Notes: generated by a model from the letters alone, not told the origin. A stretch of DNA of 64,000 nt from Blastocatellia bacterium (GCA_025054955.1 JANWZE010000006.1:1-64000), one strand, 5' to 3'; positions 50,966-64,000 are shown, numbered from the stretch's first letter. Numbers and translations: made by a program.

Positions 50966-51916
50966 ATGATTACGATCCTGGCTGGCGGTACAGGCGCAGC
51001 CAAATTCATTCGCGGCCTTGTCGAATGTGTGCCGCAAGAAGAGATCACGATCATCGGCAACACGGGCGATGATGTGATCGTGTGGGGGCTTCATGTGTCG
51101 CCTGACCTGGACACGATCATGTATCTGCTCACCGGTTTGCTCGATGAAGAGCGTGGCTGGGGCATTCGAGATGATTCGTTTGCCTGTTTGCAGGCGATGC
51201 AGCAGTTTGATGAGATCACCTGGTTTCAACTCGGCGACCGCGATTTGGCGACGCACATCGAGCGAACATGCCTGCTGCGGCAAGGTCTGACGTTGAGCGA
51301 AGTGACAAGCCGGCTGTGTCAGGCGCTCGGCGTCAAAGCTAGGATTTTGCCAATGTCTGAGGAGCGCGTCGAAACACGGATACACACGCCGAATGGAATT
51401 TTGTCATTTCAAGAATTTTTCGTCCGCGATCGTTGGGCTGCTAATGTGACTGCTGTTGACTATCATGGCAGCGAGCAAGCGCATCCGGCGCCAGGCGTGC
51501 TGGAAGCGATCTATGCCACTGATGCCATCATCATCGCGCCGAGCAATCCGATCACGAGCATTGGGCCGATTCTCGCCGTCAATGGCATTCGGCAAGCGCT
51601 CTTTGAAACACTGGTTCCTGTCGTGGCAATCAGTCCTATTGTTGGAGGCCGAGCCGTGAGCGGCCCGGCAGGCAAATTGATGGCGGCGTTCGATTATGAC
51701 GTGTCGGCTATCGGCGTTGCCCGGATGTATCGGGACTTTCTCGATGCGCTCGTTATTGATGAGCAGGATGCCGATCTGACGCCGACTATTGAACGGCTGG
51801 GCGCGCGCGTTGTCTGCGCCAATACAATCATGCAGACGCTAAGCGACAAAGTCAGTTTAGCGCGGACTGTTCTGGCTTGTTTGAATGAGCTTGATAGCGC
51901 TCGGACGCATCCTTAG
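50966..51916 (+). CDS. cofD: 2-phospho-L-lactate transferase (CofD/FbiA)
   Basis: Joins the phospho-lactyl (or phosphoenolpyruvyl) moiety to the deazaflavin Fo, forming F420-0 or its dehydro form. The 316-residue sequence has the family landmarks: ILAGGTGAAKFIRGL at 4-18, IIGNTGDDVIVWGLHVSPDLDT-type segment near 28-50, LGDRDLATHIERT near 90, and IIAPSNPITSIGPILAV near 190. GGAGG lies before the ATG. The next two genes are cofC and cofE, making an F420 side-chain cluster. CofG/CofH (Fo synthase) is not in the window. Confidence 0.92.
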   Translation: MITILAGGTGAAKFIRGLVECVPQEEITIIGNTGDDVIVWGLHVSPDLDTIMYLLTGLLDEERGWGIRDDSFACLQAMQQFDEITWFQLGDRDLATHIERTCLLRQGLTLSEVTSRLCQALGVKARILPMSEERVETRIHTPNGILSFQEFFVRDRWAANVTAVDYHGSEQAHPAPGVLEAIYATDAIIIAPSNPITSIGPILAVNGIRQALFETLVPVVAISPIVGGRAVSGPAGKLMAAFDYDVSAIGVARMYRDFLDALVIDEQDADLTPTIERLGARVVCANTIMQTLSDKVSLARTVLACLNELDSARTHP

Positions 51917-52067
51917 AGCTTTTGGGACAATGTTCCAATGTGAGTGTGGCCCACATGGACACAATCATGATCTACGAGGCTGAGCGAGGCGCATTGAAAC
52001 GAGATAGAAAGGCATATCTGAATCACTGGTGGATTAGTTGATTCAGGTCTCATCGGAGGATTGATGT

Positions 52068-52715
52068 GTGATTGCTGCCGTTGTGCCGGTCAAAGATTTT
52101 GCCACTGCCAAGCAGCGATTGGAGGCTGTCTTGCCGCCAGCCGTGCGGCGTCGGTTGGCCGAGGTGATGCTGAAAGATGTGCTGGCCGAGGTGACAACTG
52201 CTTCTGGGCTGGATCGCGTGTTTGTCGTGACGCGGGATGAGCAAGCCGTGGCAATAGCGACGGAGCGCGGCGCATCTCTTATTGTTGATCCAGATAATCA
52301 CGGTGAGACGGAAGCCGTAGCGTTGGCGACACACGCGCTGATGCAACACGGCATTCATGCTATGCTTGTTCTGCCGGCAGACATTCCGCTGATCACGAGG
52401 GAAGATGTTGAGCAGGTCATTCATGCAGGGCGTGAGGCTGACGTTGTGCTTGTGCCGGCGCATGACGGACGAGGCACTAATGCCGTGCTGCTCTCGCCGC
52501 CGGATGTTCTGCCATTAAGATTTGGCAACGACAGCTTTCATCCACACCTGCAATCAGCCCGCGATAGCGGCTTGCGCACGAGCATCCTTCATTTGCCTCG
52601 CATTGCGTTGGATATTGATACGCCAGCCGACTTGATCTCGCTTGGCAGATGGCCGCTGCGAACCCGCGCGCAGGCGTTACTCAGAGAGATGCCATGGAAT
52701 CCACAATCCAGATAA
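52068..52715 (+). CDS. cofC: 2-phospho-L-lactate (or PEP) guanylyltransferase (CofC/FbiD)
   Basis: A 215-residue nucleotidyltransferase-fold enzyme that activates 2-phospholactate or phosphoenolpyruvate with GTP for CofD. AAVVPVKDFATAKQRLEAVL near 2-21 is the nucleotide-binding loop, LIVDPDNHGETEAVALA near 74 and MLVLPADIPLITREDVEQV near 100 carry the metal-binding aspartates, and NAVLLSPPDVLPLRFGNDSF near 143 is typical. Translation starts at GTG 52068 after GGAGGA. It overlaps cofE by 22 bases. Confidence 0.9.
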   Translation: MIAAVVPVKDFATAKQRLEAVLPPAVRRRLAEVMLKDVLAEVTTASGLDRVFVVTRDEQAVAIATERGASLIVDPDNHGETEAVALATHALMQHGIHAMLVLPADIPLITREDVEQVIHAGREADVVLVPAHDGRGTNAVLLSPPDVLPLRFGNDSFHPHLQSARDSGLRTSILHLPRIALDIDTPADLISLGRWPLRTRAQALLREMPWNPQSR

Positions 52716-53446
52716 TCGGGATTGAAGGCTTGCCGGAGATTCGGCCCGGCGACGATGTGGCCGAACAGGTGCTACGCGCTGCGGCGCAGGCTGGCTTGAC
52801 GTTTCAACAGGGCGACGTGCTCGTCATTGCGCAGAAAATCATCTCCAAAGCCGAAGGGCGATTGGTCTCTCTCAACGACATTGAGCCGTCCGAGTTTGCG
52901 CGCGCGATTGCCACCACAATGAACAAGGATGCACGCATCGTCGAAATTGTGCTGCGAGAATCCAAGCGGATTGTTCGCATGGATCGCAACGTCATGATCG
53001 TCGAGACGCATCACGGTTTTGTCTGCGCCAATGCCGGCGTTGATCAGTCGAACGTGGCCGGTGGCTGGGTTTCGTTGCTTCCGCGTGATCCTGATGGCTC
53101 GGCTGCGCGCATCCGGCAACAGCTCGCGCAGGCAGTAGGCATTGATCTCGCTGTCATCATCTCGGATACGTTTGGCCGTCCGTGGCGCCAAGGGCTCGTC
53201 GAGGTTGCTATTGGCGTGGCGGGACTGCACCCCCTGATGGATTATCGCGGCCTGCAAGACTCTTATGGTTATATCTTACAGGCAAGTGTCGTCGCCATCG
53301 CTGATGAGTTAGCAGCGGCGGCCGGCCTCGTCTTTGGTAAAACCAATGGCATCCCTGCGGCGGTAATTCGTGGATACCGATTTACGCCGGCGCTCGGTTC
53401 AGCCAAGACGTTACTTCGCCCGGCCGATAGGGATTTGTTTCGTTGA
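52694..53446 (+). CDS. cofE: Coenzyme F420-0:L-glutamate ligase (CofE)
   Basis: Adds glutamates to F420-0 using GTP. The 250-residue protein shows GDVLVIAQKIISKAEGRLV near 39-57, VDQSNVAGGWVSLLPRDPD near 118, and VIISDTFGRPWRQGLVEVAI near 156, all CofE signatures. It lacks the C-terminal FMN-reductase domain that actinobacterial FbiB uses to reduce dehydro-F420, so either a separate reductase exists or 2-phospholactate is used. ATG 52694 lies within cofC (22-base overlap), implying coupled translation. Confidence 0.92.
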   Translation: MESTIQIIGIEGLPEIRPGDDVAEQVLRAAAQAGLTFQQGDVLVIAQKIISKAEGRLVSLNDIEPSEFARAIATTMNKDARIVEIVLRESKRIVRMDRNVMIVETHHGFVCANAGVDQSNVAGGWVSLLPRDPDGSAARIRQQLAQAVGIDLAVIISDTFGRPWRQGLVEVAIGVAGLHPLMDYRGLQDSYGYILQASVVAIADELAAAAGLVFGKTNGIPAAVIRGYRFTPALGSAKTLLRPADRDLFR

Positions 53447-56377: not shown

Positions 56378-57745
56378 TCAGCGAAGTTCGATCAGCTCCA
56401 TCGCGCGTGTGACTTCGGGATTGCGCATGAACCAGCGCCAGACATTTTCAGTGCGCAGGTTCTCTGCGCTCAGCAGCGTGATACCGAGGTCAATGCCGAT
56501 GACATCGGGATTGACCCAGCCGGTGGTTGGATTGAACGCGTCGGTGAAACCGTAGCGACCGTAGATGCGGTCGCCGAACCGCTCGTGCATGGTCAGCAGC
56601 GCCGGCAGGCAAATATCCGGCGCGAACATCAGTGAGCCGCCGGCAGCGCAGGGCACGACCGTGCCGTCAATACGTCCGTCGCGCGGTAAGCCGGTTGGCG
56701 GCGGCCCGCCCCACGCGCAGTAACGGTGTTGCCCCTGTTGCAGGCAGTCCGAGGCGGTGATGCCCCATACGTTCTCTGAGTAGCTATTGGGAAACTCGCG
56801 CGCCAACCGAATGCAGAACTCGCGATGGGCGCGCGTGGCTGTCACCGAATTGGCGAACCAATCAATCTGTTGGCCCCTGGCTTCGCGCCGATGGCGAAAA
56901 TCTATCCAAGCGTGTGAATACTGATGGATAAACAATGGCGCGGCGCCGTAGATGTAGGTATAGCCTCGATAGGTAATCGGATTGCGTACCCAGGCATACC
57001 AAGCGTCGGCGGGAATCGGATGGGTCGGCGAGCCGATGGCCAGCAGATACAGGATCATGTGTTCGCTGTAGACCGACCAGCGTGCGCTGAGAAAGCCCGA
57101 TTCGGGTTTCCAGCCATGCGAGAAAATCGCCGGATCACCGTTCAACATCCAAGGAAAATCAACGCGCTCGTAAATCAGCGTGGCGAGCCGAACAATCTCA
57201 GGGTCAGCCTGGAAATACTGTCGCGCCGTCAGCACGCCCGCTAGCAGCAACGCCGTATCAATTGAAGAAACTTCACTGTCCCACTGTCGGGCGCCGGTTG
57301 TAGCGTCCATCCAGTGGTAGAACCAGCCATTTTGATGGAAGGCGCGGTTGGCCAAAAATCGCAGCGTTGCGCGCACACGCTCGCGCGCCTGTTCAGCATC
57401 AACCCATTGACGTTCTGCGGCGATGCAGTAAGCCGTCAGCCCGAATCCCGTTGAAGCGATGCTCGCCACGTTATGACGGAGCGTGCCGTCCGTTTTGGCG
57501 CGGTCGCGTATCAGGCCCGTCTCTGGCGCTTGGTGCTCCCAGAAGAAAAGAAATGAGCGACGCGATAAGTCTTCCAGGAATGCGTCCTCATGCTCCGACA
57601 ATTGGAATGAAGTGGACACGCTCGTTGACGACGATTTGCTCAGGCGGCAGGCTGTAGGCACAAACCCCATCTGAGCTATGGCGCCAATCAGCAGGCTACA
57701 GATGATCGAGTGAATTAACATAGAGGTCGCAAAGTATGAAGTCAT
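56378..57745 (-). CDS. GH144-type beta-1,2-glucanase (glucoamylase-like family)
   Basis: A 455-residue exported (alpha/alpha)6-barrel glycoside hydrolase of the glycoamylase-like family that contains GH144 endo-beta-1,2-glucanases. A signal peptide (about residues 9-33) precedes the domain. Family features include LSRRSFLFFWEHQAPETGLI near 59-78, ASTGFGLTAYCIAAERQWV near 96, the acidic loop WDSEVSSIDTALLLAGVL near 154, and GYTYIYGAAPLFIHQYSHAW near 255, then WGITASDC near 326. It overlaps the GH3 gene by four bases (ATGA). Endo-glucanase plus GH3 exo-enzyme is a usual pair for cyclic or linear beta-1,2-glucan. Confidence 0.82.
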   Translation of the reverse strand: MTSYFATSMLIHSIICSLLIGAIAQMGFVPTACRLSKSSSTSVSTSFQLSEHEDAFLEDLSRRSFLFFWEHQAPETGLIRDRAKTDGTLRHNVASIASTGFGLTAYCIAAERQWVDAEQARERVRATLRFLANRAFHQNGWFYHWMDATTGARQWDSEVSSIDTALLLAGVLTARQYFQADPEIVRLATLIYERVDFPWMLNGDPAIFSHGWKPESGFLSARWSVYSEHMILYLLAIGSPTHPIPADAWYAWVRNPITYRGYTYIYGAAPLFIHQYSHAWIDFRHRREARGQQIDWFANSVTATRAHREFCIRLAREFPNSYSENVWGITASDCLQQGQHRYCAWGGPPPTGLPRDGRIDGTVVPCAAGGSLMFAPDICLPALLTMHERFGDRIYGRYGFTDAFNPTTGWVNPDVIGIDLGITLLSAENLRTENVWRWFMRNPEVTRAMELIELR

Positions 57746-60030
57746 CGCTCCTGAACGAAGAAGCTGGCTTGAAGTCCGCCGACGGAACTGTTGCCGACAA
57801 ACACGATGAACTCGCCTGGCTCGACAACAAATCTCATCTGGCGATTGTAGAAGCCGAGATGTTCGGGGCCGAGCGTGAATTGGACACGGCGCGTTTCTCC
57901 CGGCTGGAGCGTGATTCGTTGAAATCCCTTCAACTCTCGCACGGGGCGGGTCACACTGGCGACGACATCTCGGATGTAGAGTTGCACCACTTCGTCGCCG
58001 GCGCGCTGACCGGTATTTTGGACATCAACACTGACAGTCAGTCGGCCATTGGTTGGGATGCGCTGATGACTTAATTGCAGATTGGAGAGAGCGAAGGTGG
58101 TGTAGCTCAGTCCATAGCCGAACGGAAAGAGCGGCGTCCACGGCGCGTCCAGGTACTTGGATGTGTATTTGTTGTTCACGTCAGGCGGGCGGCCAGTGTT
58201 TTTGTGGTTGTAATAGAGAGGGACTTGTCCAACGTGCCGCGGGAACGTCACGGGCAGCTTGCCGCCGGGATTGACGTCGCCGAACAATACATCGGCAATG
58301 GCATGACCGGCTTGAATGCCAGCGAACCAGGTTTCTAAAATGGCCGGCACGTTTTCGGCGATCCAGTTGATCGTCAACGGACGACCATTCATCAGCACCA
58401 CCACCACCGGTCGGCCTGTGGCGTGAATCGCCTTGACTAAATCCAGTTGACGACCGGGTAGATCAAGCGAGGTGCGCGATGCCGCTTCACCGCTCATCTC
58501 AGCCGATTCACCGACGACAACCAGCGCAATGTCCGATTGGCGCGCCGCGCGCACAGCTTCAGCCAGGCCGTCCGTTGAATCGCCGTCAATGTCGCAACCT
58601 TTAGCATAGTGAATGCGCGTGTTGGGCGAGACTTTGGCTCTGATGCCCGCCAGCACGGTGACGACGTCTTCTTTGCGGCCGTCGCCGCTCCATGAACCGA
58701 GCGGCGCGGCTTGGTCATCGGCCAGCGGGCCGATAATGGCGAGCGATTGTAGGTTTTTGCTTAACGGCAGCAGATTCCCATCGTTCTTCAATAGCACCAT
58801 CGAGCGGGCTGCCACCTGGCGCGCTGCTGCCACGTGCGCTGGATTCAATAGCACGGCGCGTTCACGCGTCTCGTCAGCGTAGGGTTGGTCGAACAAACCA
58901 AGGCGAAACTTGATGCGCAGGATACGGCGCACGGCCTCATCAATTGTTTTCATGGAGAGCTGGCCAGAGCGCAGCAATTGTGGCCCATGCTGGTTATACA
59001 GACGGCTGACCATCTCCATGTCCGTGCCGGCATTCAAAGCCAGTTGCGCGGCGTCGGCGCCGTCAGTGGCGAGTCCATGCTTGATCAGTTCTTCAACCGC
59101 CGTGTAATCACTGACGACGAATCCATCAAATTGCCATTCCCCTCGCAGGACCTTGGTTAAGGTGAACGGATTCGCTGTTGCCGGCACGCCATTCAAGTCA
59201 TTGAATGCCGTCATGAGAGTGCCGACGCCGGCCTCGACGGCTGCTTTGAACGGTGGGAAGTAAATCTCGCGCAGTGTCCATTCAGACATGTCGGTGGTAT
59301 TGTAGTCGCGTCCGGCTTCAGCCGCGCCATAGGCGACCCAGTGCTTGGCGCAGGCGACGACTTTGTCCGGCGCGCTGTAGTCTTGGCCTTGAAATCCGCG
59401 CACGCGCGCTTGCGCCATCACGGAACCGAGATAAGGGTCTTCGCCAGCGCCTTCGACGATGCGTCCCCAGCGCGGATCACGGGCAATATCCACCATCGGG
59501 GCAAACGTCCAGTGAACGCCGGCTGCGCGGCTTTCAGCCGCTGCAATGGCAGCGGCGCGTTCGACGGCAACGGGGTCCCAACTGCTGGCTTCACCAAGCG
59601 GCACAGGAAAGATCGTGCGGTAGCCGTGGATCACATCGAAGCCAAACAGCACCGGAATTTTCAAGCGCGACTGTTCGACGGCGATGCGCTGCAATTCATT
59701 CGTGCGTTTCGCGCCGCGCACATTCAGCGTCGCGCCGAGCAACCCGCGACGGATCAGCTCAGGATGCTCCTCGCGGTAGCGTCCGTCGGCGTGGCCATCG
59801 AGTTGTTGAAGCTGGCCGAGCTTCTCTTCCAACGTCATGCGGGCTAGTAGCGCGTCAATCTTGCGTTCAATCTCATTGGCCTTCGGGTCAATCGTGTTGC
59901 CGGACGGCTCAAGATAGGCACGCGTCATGGAGGCGAGCAGAAGCCCGACGACAAGGCACATCATGACCAGCGCAACGCTGGTTAGGCGTTGCTGGTGAGC
60001 ACTCGCGCGTGGTGACGGTCTGTTGTTCAT
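57742..60030 (-). CDS. bglX: GH3 family beta-glucosidase (BglX-like)
   Basis: A 762-residue exported glycoside hydrolase family 3 enzyme. The N-terminal helix (VALVMMCLVVGLLLASMTRA) suggests export. Domain order: TIM barrel (about 60-370, FGFDVIHGYRTIFPVPLGEA, WTFAPMVDIARDPRWGR), the nucleophile aspartate in GFVVSDYTAVEELIKHGL near 314, the second alpha/beta domain (IALVVVGESAEMSGEAASRT near 528), and a C-terminal fibronectin III-like domain (VQNTGQRAGDEVVQLYIRD). The start 60030 lies 22 bp after the TonB receptor stop. It would release glucose from oligosaccharides produced by the downstream GH144 enzyme. Confidence 0.92.
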   Translation of the reverse strand: MNNRPSPRASAHQQRLTSVALVMMCLVVGLLLASMTRAYLEPSGNTIDPKANEIERKIDALLARMTLEEKLGQLQQLDGHADGRYREEHPELIRRGLLGATLNVRGAKRTNELQRIAVEQSRLKIPVLFGFDVIHGYRTIFPVPLGEASSWDPVAVERAAAIAAAESRAAGVHWTFAPMVDIARDPRWGRIVEGAGEDPYLGSVMAQARVRGFQGQDYSAPDKVVACAKHWVAYGAAEAGRDYNTTDMSEWTLREIYFPPFKAAVEAGVGTLMTAFNDLNGVPATANPFTLTKVLRGEWQFDGFVVSDYTAVEELIKHGLATDGADAAQLALNAGTDMEMVSRLYNQHGPQLLRSGQLSMKTIDEAVRRILRIKFRLGLFDQPYADETRERAVLLNPAHVAAARQVAARSMVLLKNDGNLLPLSKNLQSLAIIGPLADDQAAPLGSWSGDGRKEDVVTVLAGIRAKVSPNTRIHYAKGCDIDGDSTDGLAEAVRAARQSDIALVVVGESAEMSGEAASRTSLDLPGRQLDLVKAIHATGRPVVVVLMNGRPLTINWIAENVPAILETWFAGIQAGHAIADVLFGDVNPGGKLPVTFPRHVGQVPLYYNHKNTGRPPDVNNKYTSKYLDAPWTPLFPFGYGLSYTTFALSNLQLSHQRIPTNGRLTVSVDVQNTGQRAGDEVVQLYIRDVVASVTRPVRELKGFQRITLQPGETRRVQFTLGPEHLGFYNRQMRFVVEPGEFIVFVGNSSVGGLQASFFVQER

Positions 60031-60052
60031 AAGCGGCTGGAGGATGAGCCAA

Positions 60053-63000
60053 TCAAAAACTAAATCGCGCTTGGAATTCGACAACGCGCCCGGCCAGCCC
60101 ACGTGATGCCCGGCCAAAATTGGGATTGTCAGCGAACGTGCCAGGATCGAAGAAATTCAATGGCGACAGATTCAGTTCATTGAACGCGTTGAGAAAATTG
60201 AATCGCAGTTCCAGCTTAGCGTTTTCGCCCAGTCCGGGAATTCGCGGCAGGCCAGTTTGTTTGACCAGACTCAGGTCCGTCGCGCGATAGCGCGGTCCAC
60301 GAAACGAGTTGCGTCCGATACCAGGCGGGTTGACCCGAGCCGTCGGTCCTGGTGGATTGGCATTCGGATCAATACGGACGGTCAGGTCAAAATAACGCGC
60401 GCCGCCACCAGGGAAGTTGCCGCCCGGTCGAATGAAGGCCTGGTCGCTATGATCGTTCAGTGCGCCGCCATAATAAGCAATCGGACGAATGGGTCCGTAT
60501 TGCTCGCCCGTGGCGAACCGAAGACCTTGGCCGAATTTCACCGTGTAGGGTAACGACGAGCTGGCCGTGAGGATGCCGTTGATCTGCCATCCGCCTAGGA
60601 CCTTGCCAATCCAATCGCTGCGCCGATGGAAGATCGGCACATCCCACAATCCCGACAGGACAAAGTGGTGTGTCACGTCGTAGTCTGACGGACCGCGTTC
60701 GGTGGCGATGTCGCCGGGGAACGTTTGATTGGTGGGCGCGCCAGGGCCTTCGTAGGAAAGCGTATCAATGCTCTTGCTCCAGCGGTAAACTGCATCGAAG
60801 CGGAACCCTTGTGCAAAGTTTCGCGTCAAACGAGCGAGCATGCCGTGGTAATTGCCGTTGACGTCAGGTCGCAGGAAATAGACAGGCCTGAAAAACGGAT
60901 TCGGCTGCAGGATAATGTGCAGCGGCACGATGCGAATCAGTTTGTGGCTACTGCTACCCTGGTAACCGAGCGCGGCAACAAAATTCCAGGGCAATTGATA
61001 TTCAGCGTCTAACGAAAAGTTGTAGACGTAAGCATTGCGTAACTGCGGTTCCGTGCCGTAGATCTCCACCTGGCTGCCGCGCACCCCACCTGTTTCCGGG
61101 TCAATTCCTTGCGCCAGATGAGGGTTGACCGGATAACTCGTCAGCGCATTGCTTGTGCCCAACGCGTAGACAATGCGGCAAAAGGGAAAAGGGAACAAGC
61201 CGTCGGCGCTGGACCCGCAGCGACTGATCACATGACGCGCAAAGAAGGGAGGATTGCCTCGCGTATTGCCAAACAACACGCCAGGCGTGCGGTTGTAGCC
61301 AATGCCGAATCCACCGCGCCAGACGAGCTTATCGGCAAACCGTTTGGGGCTCCAGGCAAAGCCGAGGCGTGGAGCAAAGTTGTTCCGATCCGGCTCAAAC
61401 AGTTGATCCATGACTACCAGCTTGGAGCGCACCAGATCACCAGGTGGAAACACCAGATTACTGAGCCGCCCGCGCTTTTCTCTGAGCGGCGTGAAGTATT
61501 CATAGCGCAACCCAAGATTCAATGTCAGGTTGGGACGGAGCTTCCAATCATTCTGCACAAATAAACCGTAGTTGCTATAGCGAAAATAACGTTGCGCGTC
61601 AGCCGGCAAGCCCGTATTTGGATCAGCGTTGATCTGTTCTTCAAACGGGGCATCATTAGCTAGATTGTAAATCCCCTTGAAAATGTATAACGGGCGCGCG
61701 CCGCCAGCCAGATTGTTGTTGTCGTGTTCCTTGCGAATTTCTACGCCGAATTTCCAAGCCATGTTGCCACGTATCCAGGTGAGCGTATCGCGGAACTCGA
61801 ATGTGTTCTGCGCAAAAATGCCTGGCGTTGTTTCAGAGCGTTCAACGCCGATTTCCAGTAACAAGGTTGCTGGACCCTCAACACGAATACGCGGGACACC
61901 AAAATTCACATTAGGGTTATCGGCGACCTCATTGAATGAGAAGCGCGTGAAGTTGGCGCGGGCTTCATTCAGCAACGTGGCCGAAATCGTGCGAATCCAC
62001 GATACCGTTGCCGCCGAGTTGAGCGGCTTAGACGCCAGGTCGCCAACTGGGCGGCTTTGCGCCAGGTTCTTGAAGTCATCACGGCGCGTCACATAGGTGC
62101 TGACGAAAAACTGATCATTGCCACGATGGAAATCAATGCGTGTGTTAAACTGATTCCCGCGATTGCGATTGGGAAACATCAGCCGAACGAATTGAATGTC
62201 GGGAATGCCGTCCAACCCACCGCCCGTTGTGTTACTTTGCCGAACATAACGCCCCAGTCCACCGGTCAATGATCCAATGTCCAAACCGCCTGGCACAACC
62301 CGGCAGAGCATCGGGTTATTGTTCAACAACGAGCAATCGGCTGGCAGCTCGCTCAGAATCCGAGGTTCGACGCCAGGGATGGCAAACAAGCGGGCCGTCA
62401 CACCTCCCTGTCGTTGCGTCATGACCAGTTGACGGAATTGCGGGGTTTCCACATAGGTGCTCGAGAAAGTCGTCAAATTATTCCGCAAGCCTTCATACGA
62501 GAAGAAGAAGAAGAGCTTATTTCTTACGATCGGCCCGCCCAGGCTGCCTGCAAACTGTCGGAACCGTTGCTCAACACGTTCCGGTGGCGCATTCTGATTG
62601 GGATCGCCGGTGATGCCGCCATATTTATTGAATGCGTTCAAACCCGGCTCATTCAACTTGAAGACCAGGCTACCATGAAACTCGTTTGTGCCGTTTTGGG
62701 AGACAACTTTGATTTGCGCGCCGGTGTTGCGTCCATCTTCAGCGGAATAGGTTGTTGTGGTGACGCGAATCTCCTTAACCGATTCCTGATTCGGTGTCAC
62801 CACCGCAGCGCCAGCCCAACCGAGACTGTTGACGCTCACGCCGTCAATCTGATAGTTGTTGGCCGAGAGCCGTTGCCCGTTGGCGCTGATAGGAACTTGG
62901 TTTTCAACCTGGAAGATCGAGATATTGGAACCACCCGGCCCCGTCGTGTTGGGCAAGCCCACGGAGCCGCCGTTACTAGAACGCGCGCCAAGGCCAAATA

Positions 63001-63499
63001 CGCCAGGGGTCAGTCGAATCAATTCGTACGGATCACGTCCAAACTGCGGCAACCGCAACACCTCACGCGTGGTAATGGCGCGATCAATGTTCGGATTCTC
63101 TGTCTTGAGCCGCTGCTCGGCTTCAGCGGTGACAGTCACCGTCTCCACTACCTCGCCGGGCTCCAACGTGACATTGATGCCTTCAATCGTCTCAGCCGTG
63201 ACGACGATGTTATCCAATACCTTCTTCTTGAAACCGACATACTCAACCGTTAGGGTATACTGCCCCGGCGGTAATCCGGCAATGCGATAAAACCCCTCAT
63301 CGCCGGCGACGGTCTGACGTTCTTGACCGGTCTCTTTGTTGGTCAATTTGATCGTCGCTCCGGGGATCACAGCTCCCGTTGGATCGGTCACCAAACCTTG
63401 AATGCCAGCTTTGAATTGCGCGCTGGCCGTTGTCGCGCCGTACACGATGATGAGGGCAGACAAGATCAATCGAACTGTGACAGAAAACGCGCGACCCAT
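60053..63499 (-). CDS. Oar-like TonB-dependent outer-membrane receptor with carboxypeptidase-regulatory domain
   Basis: A 1148-residue outer-membrane protein. The signal peptide (MGRAFSVTVRLILSALIIVY, cut after ASA) is followed by a carboxypeptidase-regulatory-like beta sandwich (about 35-115: GLVTDPTGAVIPGATIKLTN, YRIAGLPPGQYTLTVEYVGF), a plug domain (LPQFGRDPYELIRLTPGVFG near 152) and a long beta-barrel ending in QARFSF with a terminal aromatic residue, as outer-membrane barrels require. The start 63499 has AGGAGGG. Being first of an operon with GH3 and GH144, it probably imports oligosaccharides. No SusD-like partner is seen. Confidence 0.9.
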   Translation of the reverse strand: MGRAFSVTVRLILSALIIVYGATTASAQFKAGIQGLVTDPTGAVIPGATIKLTNKETGQERQTVAGDEGFYRIAGLPPGQYTLTVEYVGFKKKVLDNIVVTAETIEGINVTLEPGEVVETVTVTAEAEQRLKTENPNIDRAITTREVLRLPQFGRDPYELIRLTPGVFGLGARSSNGGSVGLPNTTGPGGSNISIFQVENQVPISANGQRLSANNYQIDGVSVNSLGWAGAAVVTPNQESVKEIRVTTTTYSAEDGRNTGAQIKVVSQNGTNEFHGSLVFKLNEPGLNAFNKYGGITGDPNQNAPPERVEQRFRQFAGSLGGPIVRNKLFFFFSYEGLRNNLTTFSSTYVETPQFRQLVMTQRQGGVTARLFAIPGVEPRILSELPADCSLLNNNPMLCRVVPGGLDIGSLTGGLGRYVRQSNTTGGGLDGIPDIQFVRLMFPNRNRGNQFNTRIDFHRGNDQFFVSTYVTRRDDFKNLAQSRPVGDLASKPLNSAATVSWIRTISATLLNEARANFTRFSFNEVADNPNVNFGVPRIRVEGPATLLLEIGVERSETTPGIFAQNTFEFRDTLTWIRGNMAWKFGVEIRKEHDNNNLAGGARPLYIFKGIYNLANDAPFEEQINADPNTGLPADAQRYFRYSNYGLFVQNDWKLRPNLTLNLGLRYEYFTPLREKRGRLSNLVFPPGDLVRSKLVVMDQLFEPDRNNFAPRLGFAWSPKRFADKLVWRGGFGIGYNRTPGVLFGNTRGNPPFFARHVISRCGSSADGLFPFPFCRIVYALGTSNALTSYPVNPHLAQGIDPETGGVRGSQVEIYGTEPQLRNAYVYNFSLDAEYQLPWNFVAALGYQGSSSHKLIRIVPLHIILQPNPFFRPVYFLRPDVNGNYHGMLARLTRNFAQGFRFDAVYRWSKSIDTLSYEGPGAPTNQTFPGDIATERGPSDYDVTHHFVLSGLWDVPIFHRRSDWIGKVLGGWQINGILTASSSLPYTVKFGQGLRFATGEQYGPIRPIAYYGGALNDHSDQAFIRPGGNFPGGGARYFDLTVRIDPNANPPGPTARVNPPGIGRNSFRGPRYRATDLSLVKQTGLPRIPGLGENAKLELRFNFLNAFNELNLSPLNFFDPGTFADNPNFGRASRGLAGRVVEFQARFSF

Positions 63500-63660
63500 A
63501 TTCCAAACCCTCCTGTGGCCGATCGCTGGTTGCCGCATGGGGCAAGAAATCGGCCCCGCATGGAGACCACCGCAATGCCGGAGCATCTGCATGCGTGCCG
63601 TTTGCAGTGTAGGATTTTGCCTCAAAGACCGGCGACCAGCGACCAGCCGCGCTTACCCCA

Positions 63661-64000
63661 TTAGTTGCCGATTAGCTTACCGTTGAACTGGATGTTGTCG
63701 AACAAAGCTGCCGCCCGGTTGTCAGGGTTCGCTGTGCTAATGACAACCTGCATATAACCTTTGATGAAGAACGGCCCCGGTATGCCTTGTTCCAGATTGG
63801 TGATCTCCAGCGGCCCACTGGTTTGCTCCTGGCCGCCGAGCTCAGTGACATAATACTGAATTTTCCGTTTCCCATCGGTATCCCGGAAGTAGCGCAAGCG
63901 CATGTTGATCTTTTCGCCTGAATCATAGGTTCGCGGGAACGCATAGAAGGGGAACGGACCGCCAAACGCAACGACTTCATGGGCATCGGTGTTGACAATG
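63661..64000 (-). CDS. C-terminal fragment of unknown secreted-type protein (cut by window edge)
   Basis: The frame is open from the window edge to the TAG/TAA at 63661-63663, giving the last ~112 residues. It looks beta-rich (EKINMRLRYFRDTDGKRKIQ, FFIKGYMQVVISTANPDNRA, ALFDNIQFNGKLIGN), as in a jelly-roll or carbohydrate-binding module, but I cannot assign a family. It lies upstream of the TonB receptor on the same strand with a 161-bp gap, so it may be a separate unit of the same glycan locus. Confidence 0.6.
   Translation of the reverse strand, partial: IVNTDAHEVVAFGGPFPFYAFPRTYDSGEKINMRLRYFRDTDGKRKIQYYVTELGGQEQTSGPLEITNLEQGIPGPFFIKGYMQVVISTANPDNRAAALFDNIQFNGKLIGN

What the first reader, a model, noticed from the sequence alone, without database searches (positions are those of the whole stretch)
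56378..64000. Compact beta-1,2-glucan utilisation operon without SusD
A TonB receptor, a GH3 beta-glucosidase and a GH144-type glucanase are tightly packed on one strand (22-bp gap, then ATGA overlap). GH144 enzymes characterised in Bacteroidota cleave beta-1,2-glucan and commonly pair with GH3. The receptor is of the Oar-like, carboxypeptidase-regulatory type rather than SusC, and no SusD is present. If it imports sophorooligosaccharides this would be a SusCD-independent PUL outside Bacteroidota. Function is inferred from families and context.
Basis: partly seen in the sequence, partly recalled or inferred. Interest (0 to 1): 0.6.

Follow-up and report, generated by a model that had tools for sequence, protein, structure and literature searches.

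The report
SusD-less beta-1,2-glucan operon, Acidobacteriota
A hot-spring-type acidobacterium carries a small gene set (an outer-membrane receptor, two sugar-cutting enzymes and a previously unseen lectin-like secreted protein) that most likely imports and digests beta-1,2-glucan made by other bacteria without the SusC/SusD pair that Bacteroidota use.

Summary
In detail: GH144 (56378-57745), GH3 (57742-60030) and an Oar-like TonB receptor (60053-63499) lie on the minus strand, with a 22-bp gap and an ATGA overlap. GH144 is closest to XcSGL, an assayed endo-beta-1,2-glucanase, and keeps the clan and catalytic residues; GH3 is BglX-type. The order receptor-GH3-GH144 recurs in acidobacterial relatives (16 loci hold all three); their receptors are at least 46% identical, but at most about 32% (near-full-length) to the ~40 paralogues in the window's genome. 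In seven relatives GH3 and GH144 are one protein; several add a LacI regulator and a XylFGH-type ABC importer. The genome has no SusD, GH94 or MdoG and a single GH144-type gene, so foreign glucan is likelier food than self-made glucan. SusD-independent TonB sugar loci outside Bacteroidota are known since 2007 (Xanthomonas CUT loci), and SusCD-GH3-GH144 synteny is published: a new variant of a known kind. Substrate, import and P4 binding are inferred.

The parts
56378..57745 (-). GH144 endo-beta-1,2-glucanase (455 aa, exported)
   Evidence: PF10091 E 1.2e-68; nearest solved structure XcSGL 8xul E 8.7e-77, then CpSGL 5gzh/5gzk; D163, E228, F272, Y342 at the positions of the proposed base, the general acid and the clan residues, each identical in all 47 loci
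57742..60030 (-). GH3 beta-glucosidase, BglX type, signal peptide; overlaps GH144 by ATGA
   Evidence: PF00933, PF01915, PF14310; NCBIfam BglX 859 bits against a cut-off of 666; PDB relatives include 5xxl periplasmic beta-glucosidase and lin1840; D337 kept in all aligned copies
60053..63499 (-). Oar-like TonB-dependent receptor (CarboxypepD_reg plus OMP_b-brl_4 barrel), start ATG at 63497-63499 with AGGAGGG ahead of it
   Evidence: Pfam; sequence; orthologues in 16 loci at 47-73% against at most about 32% for near-full-length paralogues in the same genome
63661..64000 (-). P4: secreted 238-aa protein with a predicted ConA-like beta-sandwich, cut by the window end; whole gene is L002:13661-14377 (window-equivalent 63661-64377)
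   Evidence: no Pfam or PDB sequence match; model pLDDT 76 and fold matches; same place in four order relatives

Best explanation
A SusD-independent beta-1,2-glucan utilisation operon of a Blastocatellia-like acidobacterium. Proposed steps: (1) P4, a secreted lectin-like protein, captures or presents the glucan at the cell surface (inferred, weak). (2) The Oar-like TonB-dependent receptor carries linear or cyclic beta-1,2-glucan, or large pieces of it, through the outer membrane (inferred from co-inheritance). (3) Exported GH144 cuts it endolytically into sophoro-oligosaccharides (strong inference from family and residues). (4) GH3 trims these to glucose in the same compartment (inferred; GH3 and GH144 are one polypeptide in seven relatives). 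(5) Glucose crosses the inner membrane by a separate importer; relatives encode a XylFGH-type ABC importer and a LacI regulator beside the operon, the window's locus does not. The glucan is probably foreign, made by other bacteria.
For: Domains and gene order. GH144 closest to XcSGL, assayed as a beta-1,2-glucan-specific endo-enzyme, with the clan and catalytic residues kept in 47 of 47 loci. Receptor, GH3 and GH144 together in 16 more loci; receptors at least 46% identical between operons; enzyme and receptor identities rise and fall together (Mantel r 0.75-0.91; confounded by species relatedness). GH3-GH144 fused in 7 loci. LacI and XylFGH-type genes in relatives. No MdoG, no GH94 and a single PF10091 gene in the genome, so no recognised beta-1,2-glucan synthesis. 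P4 upstream of the receptor in L016-L019 and beside LacI and GH144-CBM9 in a planctomycete.
Against: No activity, transport or expression data. GH144 also contains an exo-acting member (BDI_3064), so the exact product is uncertain. No canonical plug domain (PF07715) was detected in the receptor. The window's operon has no inner-membrane transporter or regulator of its own. P4 occurs in only 3 of 396 sampled Acidobacteriota, and one of those copies has no GH144 within the ~9 kb on either side that was read, so it cannot be essential to such systems. No promoter could be recognised (consensus scan at chance level).
Confidence: 0.72

Rival explanations
1. Same operon, but GH144 works outside the cell (surface-bound or secreted) and the receptor takes up only short sophoro-oligosaccharides; GH3 then acts in the periplasm. 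This is the usual SusCD-style division of labour.
For: In the window's order the GH144 N-terminus has a Cys after the hydrophobic stretch (PTAC here, PAQC or PVHC in relatives), a possible lipidation site.
Against: The Cys context is not a canonical lipobox; GH3 and GH144 are one protein in seven relatives, so there they share a compartment; other relatives have no such Cys.
Confidence: 0.35
2. The enzymes serve turnover of the cell's own osmoregulated periplasmic or cyclic beta-1,2-glucan; the receptor is a chance neighbour.
For: GH144-type enzymes act on beta-1,2-glucans, which many bacteria make as periplasmic glucans (family knowledge).
Against: No MdoG, no GH94 and only one PF10091 gene in a 99% complete genome; the receptor is co-inherited with the enzymes; relatives add a sugar importer and LacI.
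Confidence: 0.08
3. The receptor imports something unrelated (siderophore, peptide) or is an adhesion or signalling barrel; only GH3-GH144 form the glucan system.
For: Oar-like receptors are very many in this genome (about 40) and few of this type have a known ligand; no canonical plug domain was found.
Against: The receptors of this operon form one set at 46% identity or more across Acidobacteriota while same-genome paralogues reach at most about 32% over near-full length, and the gene is placed next to the enzymes in 17 loci.
Confidence: 0.12
4. The operon targets a different beta-glucan and GH144 is only distantly like the tested enzymes.
For: GH3 of BglX type is broad in specificity (family knowledge; for the type).
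Against: The assayed members of GH144 and its sister families that show activity are specific for beta-1,2-glucans or their oligosaccharides (PMC12102758); active-site residues kept.
Confidence: 0.07

Closest known systems
XcSGL (XCC2207, GH144, Xanthomonas campestris; PDB 8xul)
   Same: Best solved-structure match of the GH144 (E 8.7e-77); same family and catalytic residues. The neighbouring locus number, XCC2208, is a TonB receptor reported to lack a canonical plug (PMC1790865), so a similar receptor-GH144 pairing may exist there (inferred from locus tags only).
   Different: Proteobacterium; no check made here of a GH3 or of the receptor type at that locus.
CUT loci (carbohydrate utilisation loci with TonB-dependent receptor) of Xanthomonas
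   Same: TonB receptor plus degradative enzymes, no SusD, outside Bacteroidota (PMC1790865).
   Different: CUT loci also hold an inner-membrane transporter and regulator; the window's operon has neither beside it, though acidobacterial relatives do.
Bacteroidota SusC/SusD-GH3-GH144 loci
   Same: GH3 close behind the receptor and frequent GH144 (PMC6550366); beta-1,2-glucan loci are among the abundant ones (PMC6499787).
   Different: SusCD pair there; Oar-like receptor and no SusD here, with an unrelated lectin-like protein in the leading position.
Ignavibacterium album beta-1,2-glucan cluster
   Same: GH144 with a TonB route and an ABC importer proposed by the authors (PMC8861115).
   Different: Uses GH94 and a GH35 transferase; this genome has no GH94.

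Membership tests
GH144 (endo-beta-1,2-glucanase) | Sequence membership: PF10091 and best match to characterised GH144 | tested here: met
   PF10091 231 bits against a cut-off of 27; best hits XcSGL and other GH144 structures including CpSGL, while the Group 3 (GH194) PgSGL3 (8xuk) is far weaker, E 3e-11
GH144 (endo-beta-1,2-glucanase) | Clan residues (XcSGL E239, F286, Y367) and candidate base (CpSGL E142) | tested here: met
   E228, F272, Y342, D163 by alignment; invariant in 47 loci. Y342 is placed by the CpSGL-type alignments; the XcSGL alignment is shifted there
GH144 (endo-beta-1,2-glucanase) | Hydrolysis specific to beta-1,2-glucan | not testable with these tools
   needs an assay
GH3 beta-glucosidase (BglX type) | GH3 N and C domains plus Fn3, catalytic Asp | tested here: met
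GH3 beta-glucosidase (BglX type) | Preference for sophoro-oligosaccharides | not testable with these tools
   relatives with that preference (5xxl, which I take to be the B. thetaiotaomicron enzyme, and lin1840) are among many hits; not diagnostic
Polysaccharide utilisation locus (SusC/SusD type) | Adjacent susC-susD pair | tested here: not met
   no SusD in locus or genome; receptor scores 22 bits against 368 for TIGR04056
CUT locus | TonB receptor beside carbohydrate-degrading enzymes, without SusD | tested here: met
CUT locus | Inner-membrane sugar transporter and sugar regulator in the same locus | tested here: not met
   neighbours read are an S13 peptidase, DUF983 and others; present in relatives L026, L032, L040. 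Hence a partial CUT-like locus
PL7 alginate lyase (fold neighbour of P4) | Catalytic motifs R(T/S)ExR, Q(I/V)H, YFKAG | tested here: not met
   none in the five P4 homologues scanned; fold-level resemblance only

The most novel reading that the evidence does not exclude
P4 is a new family of surface glycan-binding protein that does for an Oar-like receptor what SusD does for SusC: it binds beta-1,2-glucan and hands it to the receptor. This would be an independent solution to glycan capture in Acidobacteriota and, beside GH144, in Planctomycetota.
Probability: 0.2. Interest if true: 0.62.

Novelty: new variant of a known kind. Interest (0 to 1): 0.4.

Why it matters
Oar-like receptors are present in dozens of copies in acidobacterial genomes such as this one and few have a known ligand. 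An operon that ties one conserved receptor lineage to a single, chemically simple polymer gives a direct, testable receptor-ligand pair. The GH3-GH144 fusions of relatives would be single-chain enzymes turning beta-1,2-glucan into glucose, and P4 is a candidate glycan-capture protein of an undescribed family.

Tried and rejected
GH192-194 membership of the GH144 (prompted by the PDB entries of the 2025 family paper): rejected, since XCC2207 is classed there as GH144 and the Group 3 (GH194) hit is weak. SusD elsewhere in the genome: none by two Pfam models. Self-glucan turnover: no MdoG, no GH94, one PF10091 gene. P4 as PL7 lyase: motifs absent. P4 in plasmids or viral contigs: none. Promoters: count equal to shuffles; terminators: fewer than in shuffles; no Rfam match. 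Lipobox scan: no canonical box in any of the four products. P4 as a universal partner: rejected, only 3 of 396 Acidobacteriota hold it. First P4 model was poor (pLDDT 64); an alignment of six mature regions gave 76 with the same fold class.

Full report
What is there. On the minus strand, in transcription order, lie an Oar-like TonB-dependent receptor (60053-63499), a GH3 enzyme (57742-60030) and a GH144 enzyme (56378-57745). The window lies on a contig of 68196 bases; reading on past the window end shows a fourth gene, called P4 here: 238 aa, signal peptide, start preceded by GGAGGAG, ending 161 bp before the receptor start. Beyond it is an S13 D-Ala-D-Ala peptidase, which I take to be outside the unit.

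The enzymes. The GH144 belongs to PF10091 at 231 bits. The best solved structure is 8xul, XCC2207/XcSGL, followed by other GH144 structures including CpSGL. The 2025 family paper PMC12102758 classes XcSGL as GH144 and shows endo-activity on beta-1,2-glucan and none on the other polymers shown. The residues that paper uses to define the clan, and the proposed catalytic acid and base, correspond to E228, F272, Y342 and D163 here and are identical in all 47 loci aligned. The chain of 8xul has Gln where the general acid should be, which fits the paper's remark that an XcSGL mutant was crystallised; the window's protein has Glu. The GH3 is of the BglX type by the NCBIfam cut-off, with the catalytic Asp kept. 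Preference for sophoro-oligosaccharides cannot be told from sequence.

The receptor. It carries a CarboxypepD_reg domain and an OMP_b-brl_4 barrel and is not SusC by TIGR04056 (22 bits against 368). The genome has about 40 receptors of this type and no SusD by two models, each of which rings in the Bacteroides control. Lack of SusD is therefore a feature of the organism. What singles this receptor out is its inheritance: in 17 operons the receptors are at least 46% identical to each other, while the near-full-length paralogues of the same genome reach at most about 32% (short stretches of others go higher).

Relatives. A scan of bacterial and archaeal species genomes gave 46 loci. Receptor, GH3 and GH144 lie together on one strand in 16 of them beside the window's, almost always in that order (L024 has GH144 before GH3). 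In seven loci (L026, L028, L030, L033, L034, L037, L041) GH3 and GH144 form one open frame of about 1175-1200 aa (947 aa in L033, cut by the contig start); Pfam finds the GH3 domains and PF10091 in the one checked, L026. The tree puts six of the seven fused forms together with one locus where no GH3 was found, and the seventh beside an unfused copy, so more than one fusion or fission is needed. Several of these loci also have a LacI regulator beside the receptor and a XylFGH-type monosaccharide ABC importer after the enzymes. This fits a catabolic route that ends in glucose. GH144 genes of Omnitrophota and of most Elusimicrobiota found here stand without these partners.

P4. It has no Pfam or PDB sequence match. 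AlphaFold2 on six mature sequences gives an all-beta model (pLDDT 76, pTM 0.78); Foldseek matches are concanavalin-type sandwiches: legume lectins, PL7 alginate lyases, Emp46p/Emp47p carbohydrate domains, CBM66 and the lectin-like modules of larger proteins, at 7-12% identity and query TM-scores of about 0.35-0.6. That is resemblance of fold only. PL7 catalytic motifs are absent. P4 lies at the same place upstream of the receptor in L016-L019, and a homologue at 38% sits in a planctomycete cluster LacI - P4 - prepilin-like protein - GH144 with CBM9. Against a strict link, only 3 of 396 Acidobacteriota hold P4, and the copy in G146 has no GH144 within the stretch read. A glycan-binding role is thus a reasonable lead, not a result.

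Why foreign glucan. The genome is 99.5% complete and has one PF10091 gene, no MdoG and no GH94, so no recognised pathway to make beta-1,2-glucan or to phosphorolyse it. The simplest reading is consumption of glucan made by other bacteria.

Where the enzymes work. The fusions show that in relatives GH3 and GH144 share a compartment, and the products here have hydrophobic, export-type N-termini (read by eye). This favours, without proving, import of long glucan followed by periplasmic digestion. A Cys near the GH144 N-terminus in the window's order leaves surface anchoring open, though no canonical lipobox was found.

Comparison with what is known. TonB carbohydrate loci without SusD have been known in Proteobacteria since 2007 (PMC1790865); SusCD-GH3-GH144 synteny has been described in metagenomic clones (PMC6550366); a TonB route for beta-1,2-glucan was proposed for Ignavibacterium (PMC8861115). 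I found no paper in the library on such an operon in Acidobacteriota or on GH3-GH144 fusions; the library lacks most subscription journals. The operon is a new variant of a known kind; P4 and the fusions are the parts worth follow-up.

Noticed in passing
L026:6670-10275 (also L028, L030, L033, L034, L037, L041): GH3 and GH144 fused in one protein of about 1200 aa in Pyrinomonadaceae and other Blastocatellia: a natural one-chain route from beta-1,2-glucan to glucose.
   Followed up: partly
L026:5487-7100 (-), L024:4140-5552 (-), L036:7687-9021 (-), L039:7442-8845 (-), L041:5378-6907 (-): An open frame on the opposite strand lies between receptor and enzymes in five loci that fall in one sequence cluster; in L026 it encodes a TPR-repeat protein.
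   Followed up: partly
L053, L055, L058-L061: Omnitrophota GH144 genes sit in a conserved cluster with pilin-like genes (prepilin N-terminus) and, in five of the six, a large RND-transporter-like gene, a context quite unlike the acidobacterial one.
   Followed up: no
L064:10187-11440 (genome G004): GH144 copy aligning only from residue 146 on, with no operon partners in the stretch read, in a relative of the window's order; looks like decay of the system.
   Followed up: partly
window 50966-53446: Three consecutive plus-strand genes that look like coenzyme F420 biosynthesis (CofD-, CofC- and FbiB/CofE-like), judged by eye from the translations.
   Followed up: no
L046:10921-13146: Large frame after GH144-CBM9 in a planctomycete with no Pfam match; possible further part of the glucan cluster.
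   Followed up: no
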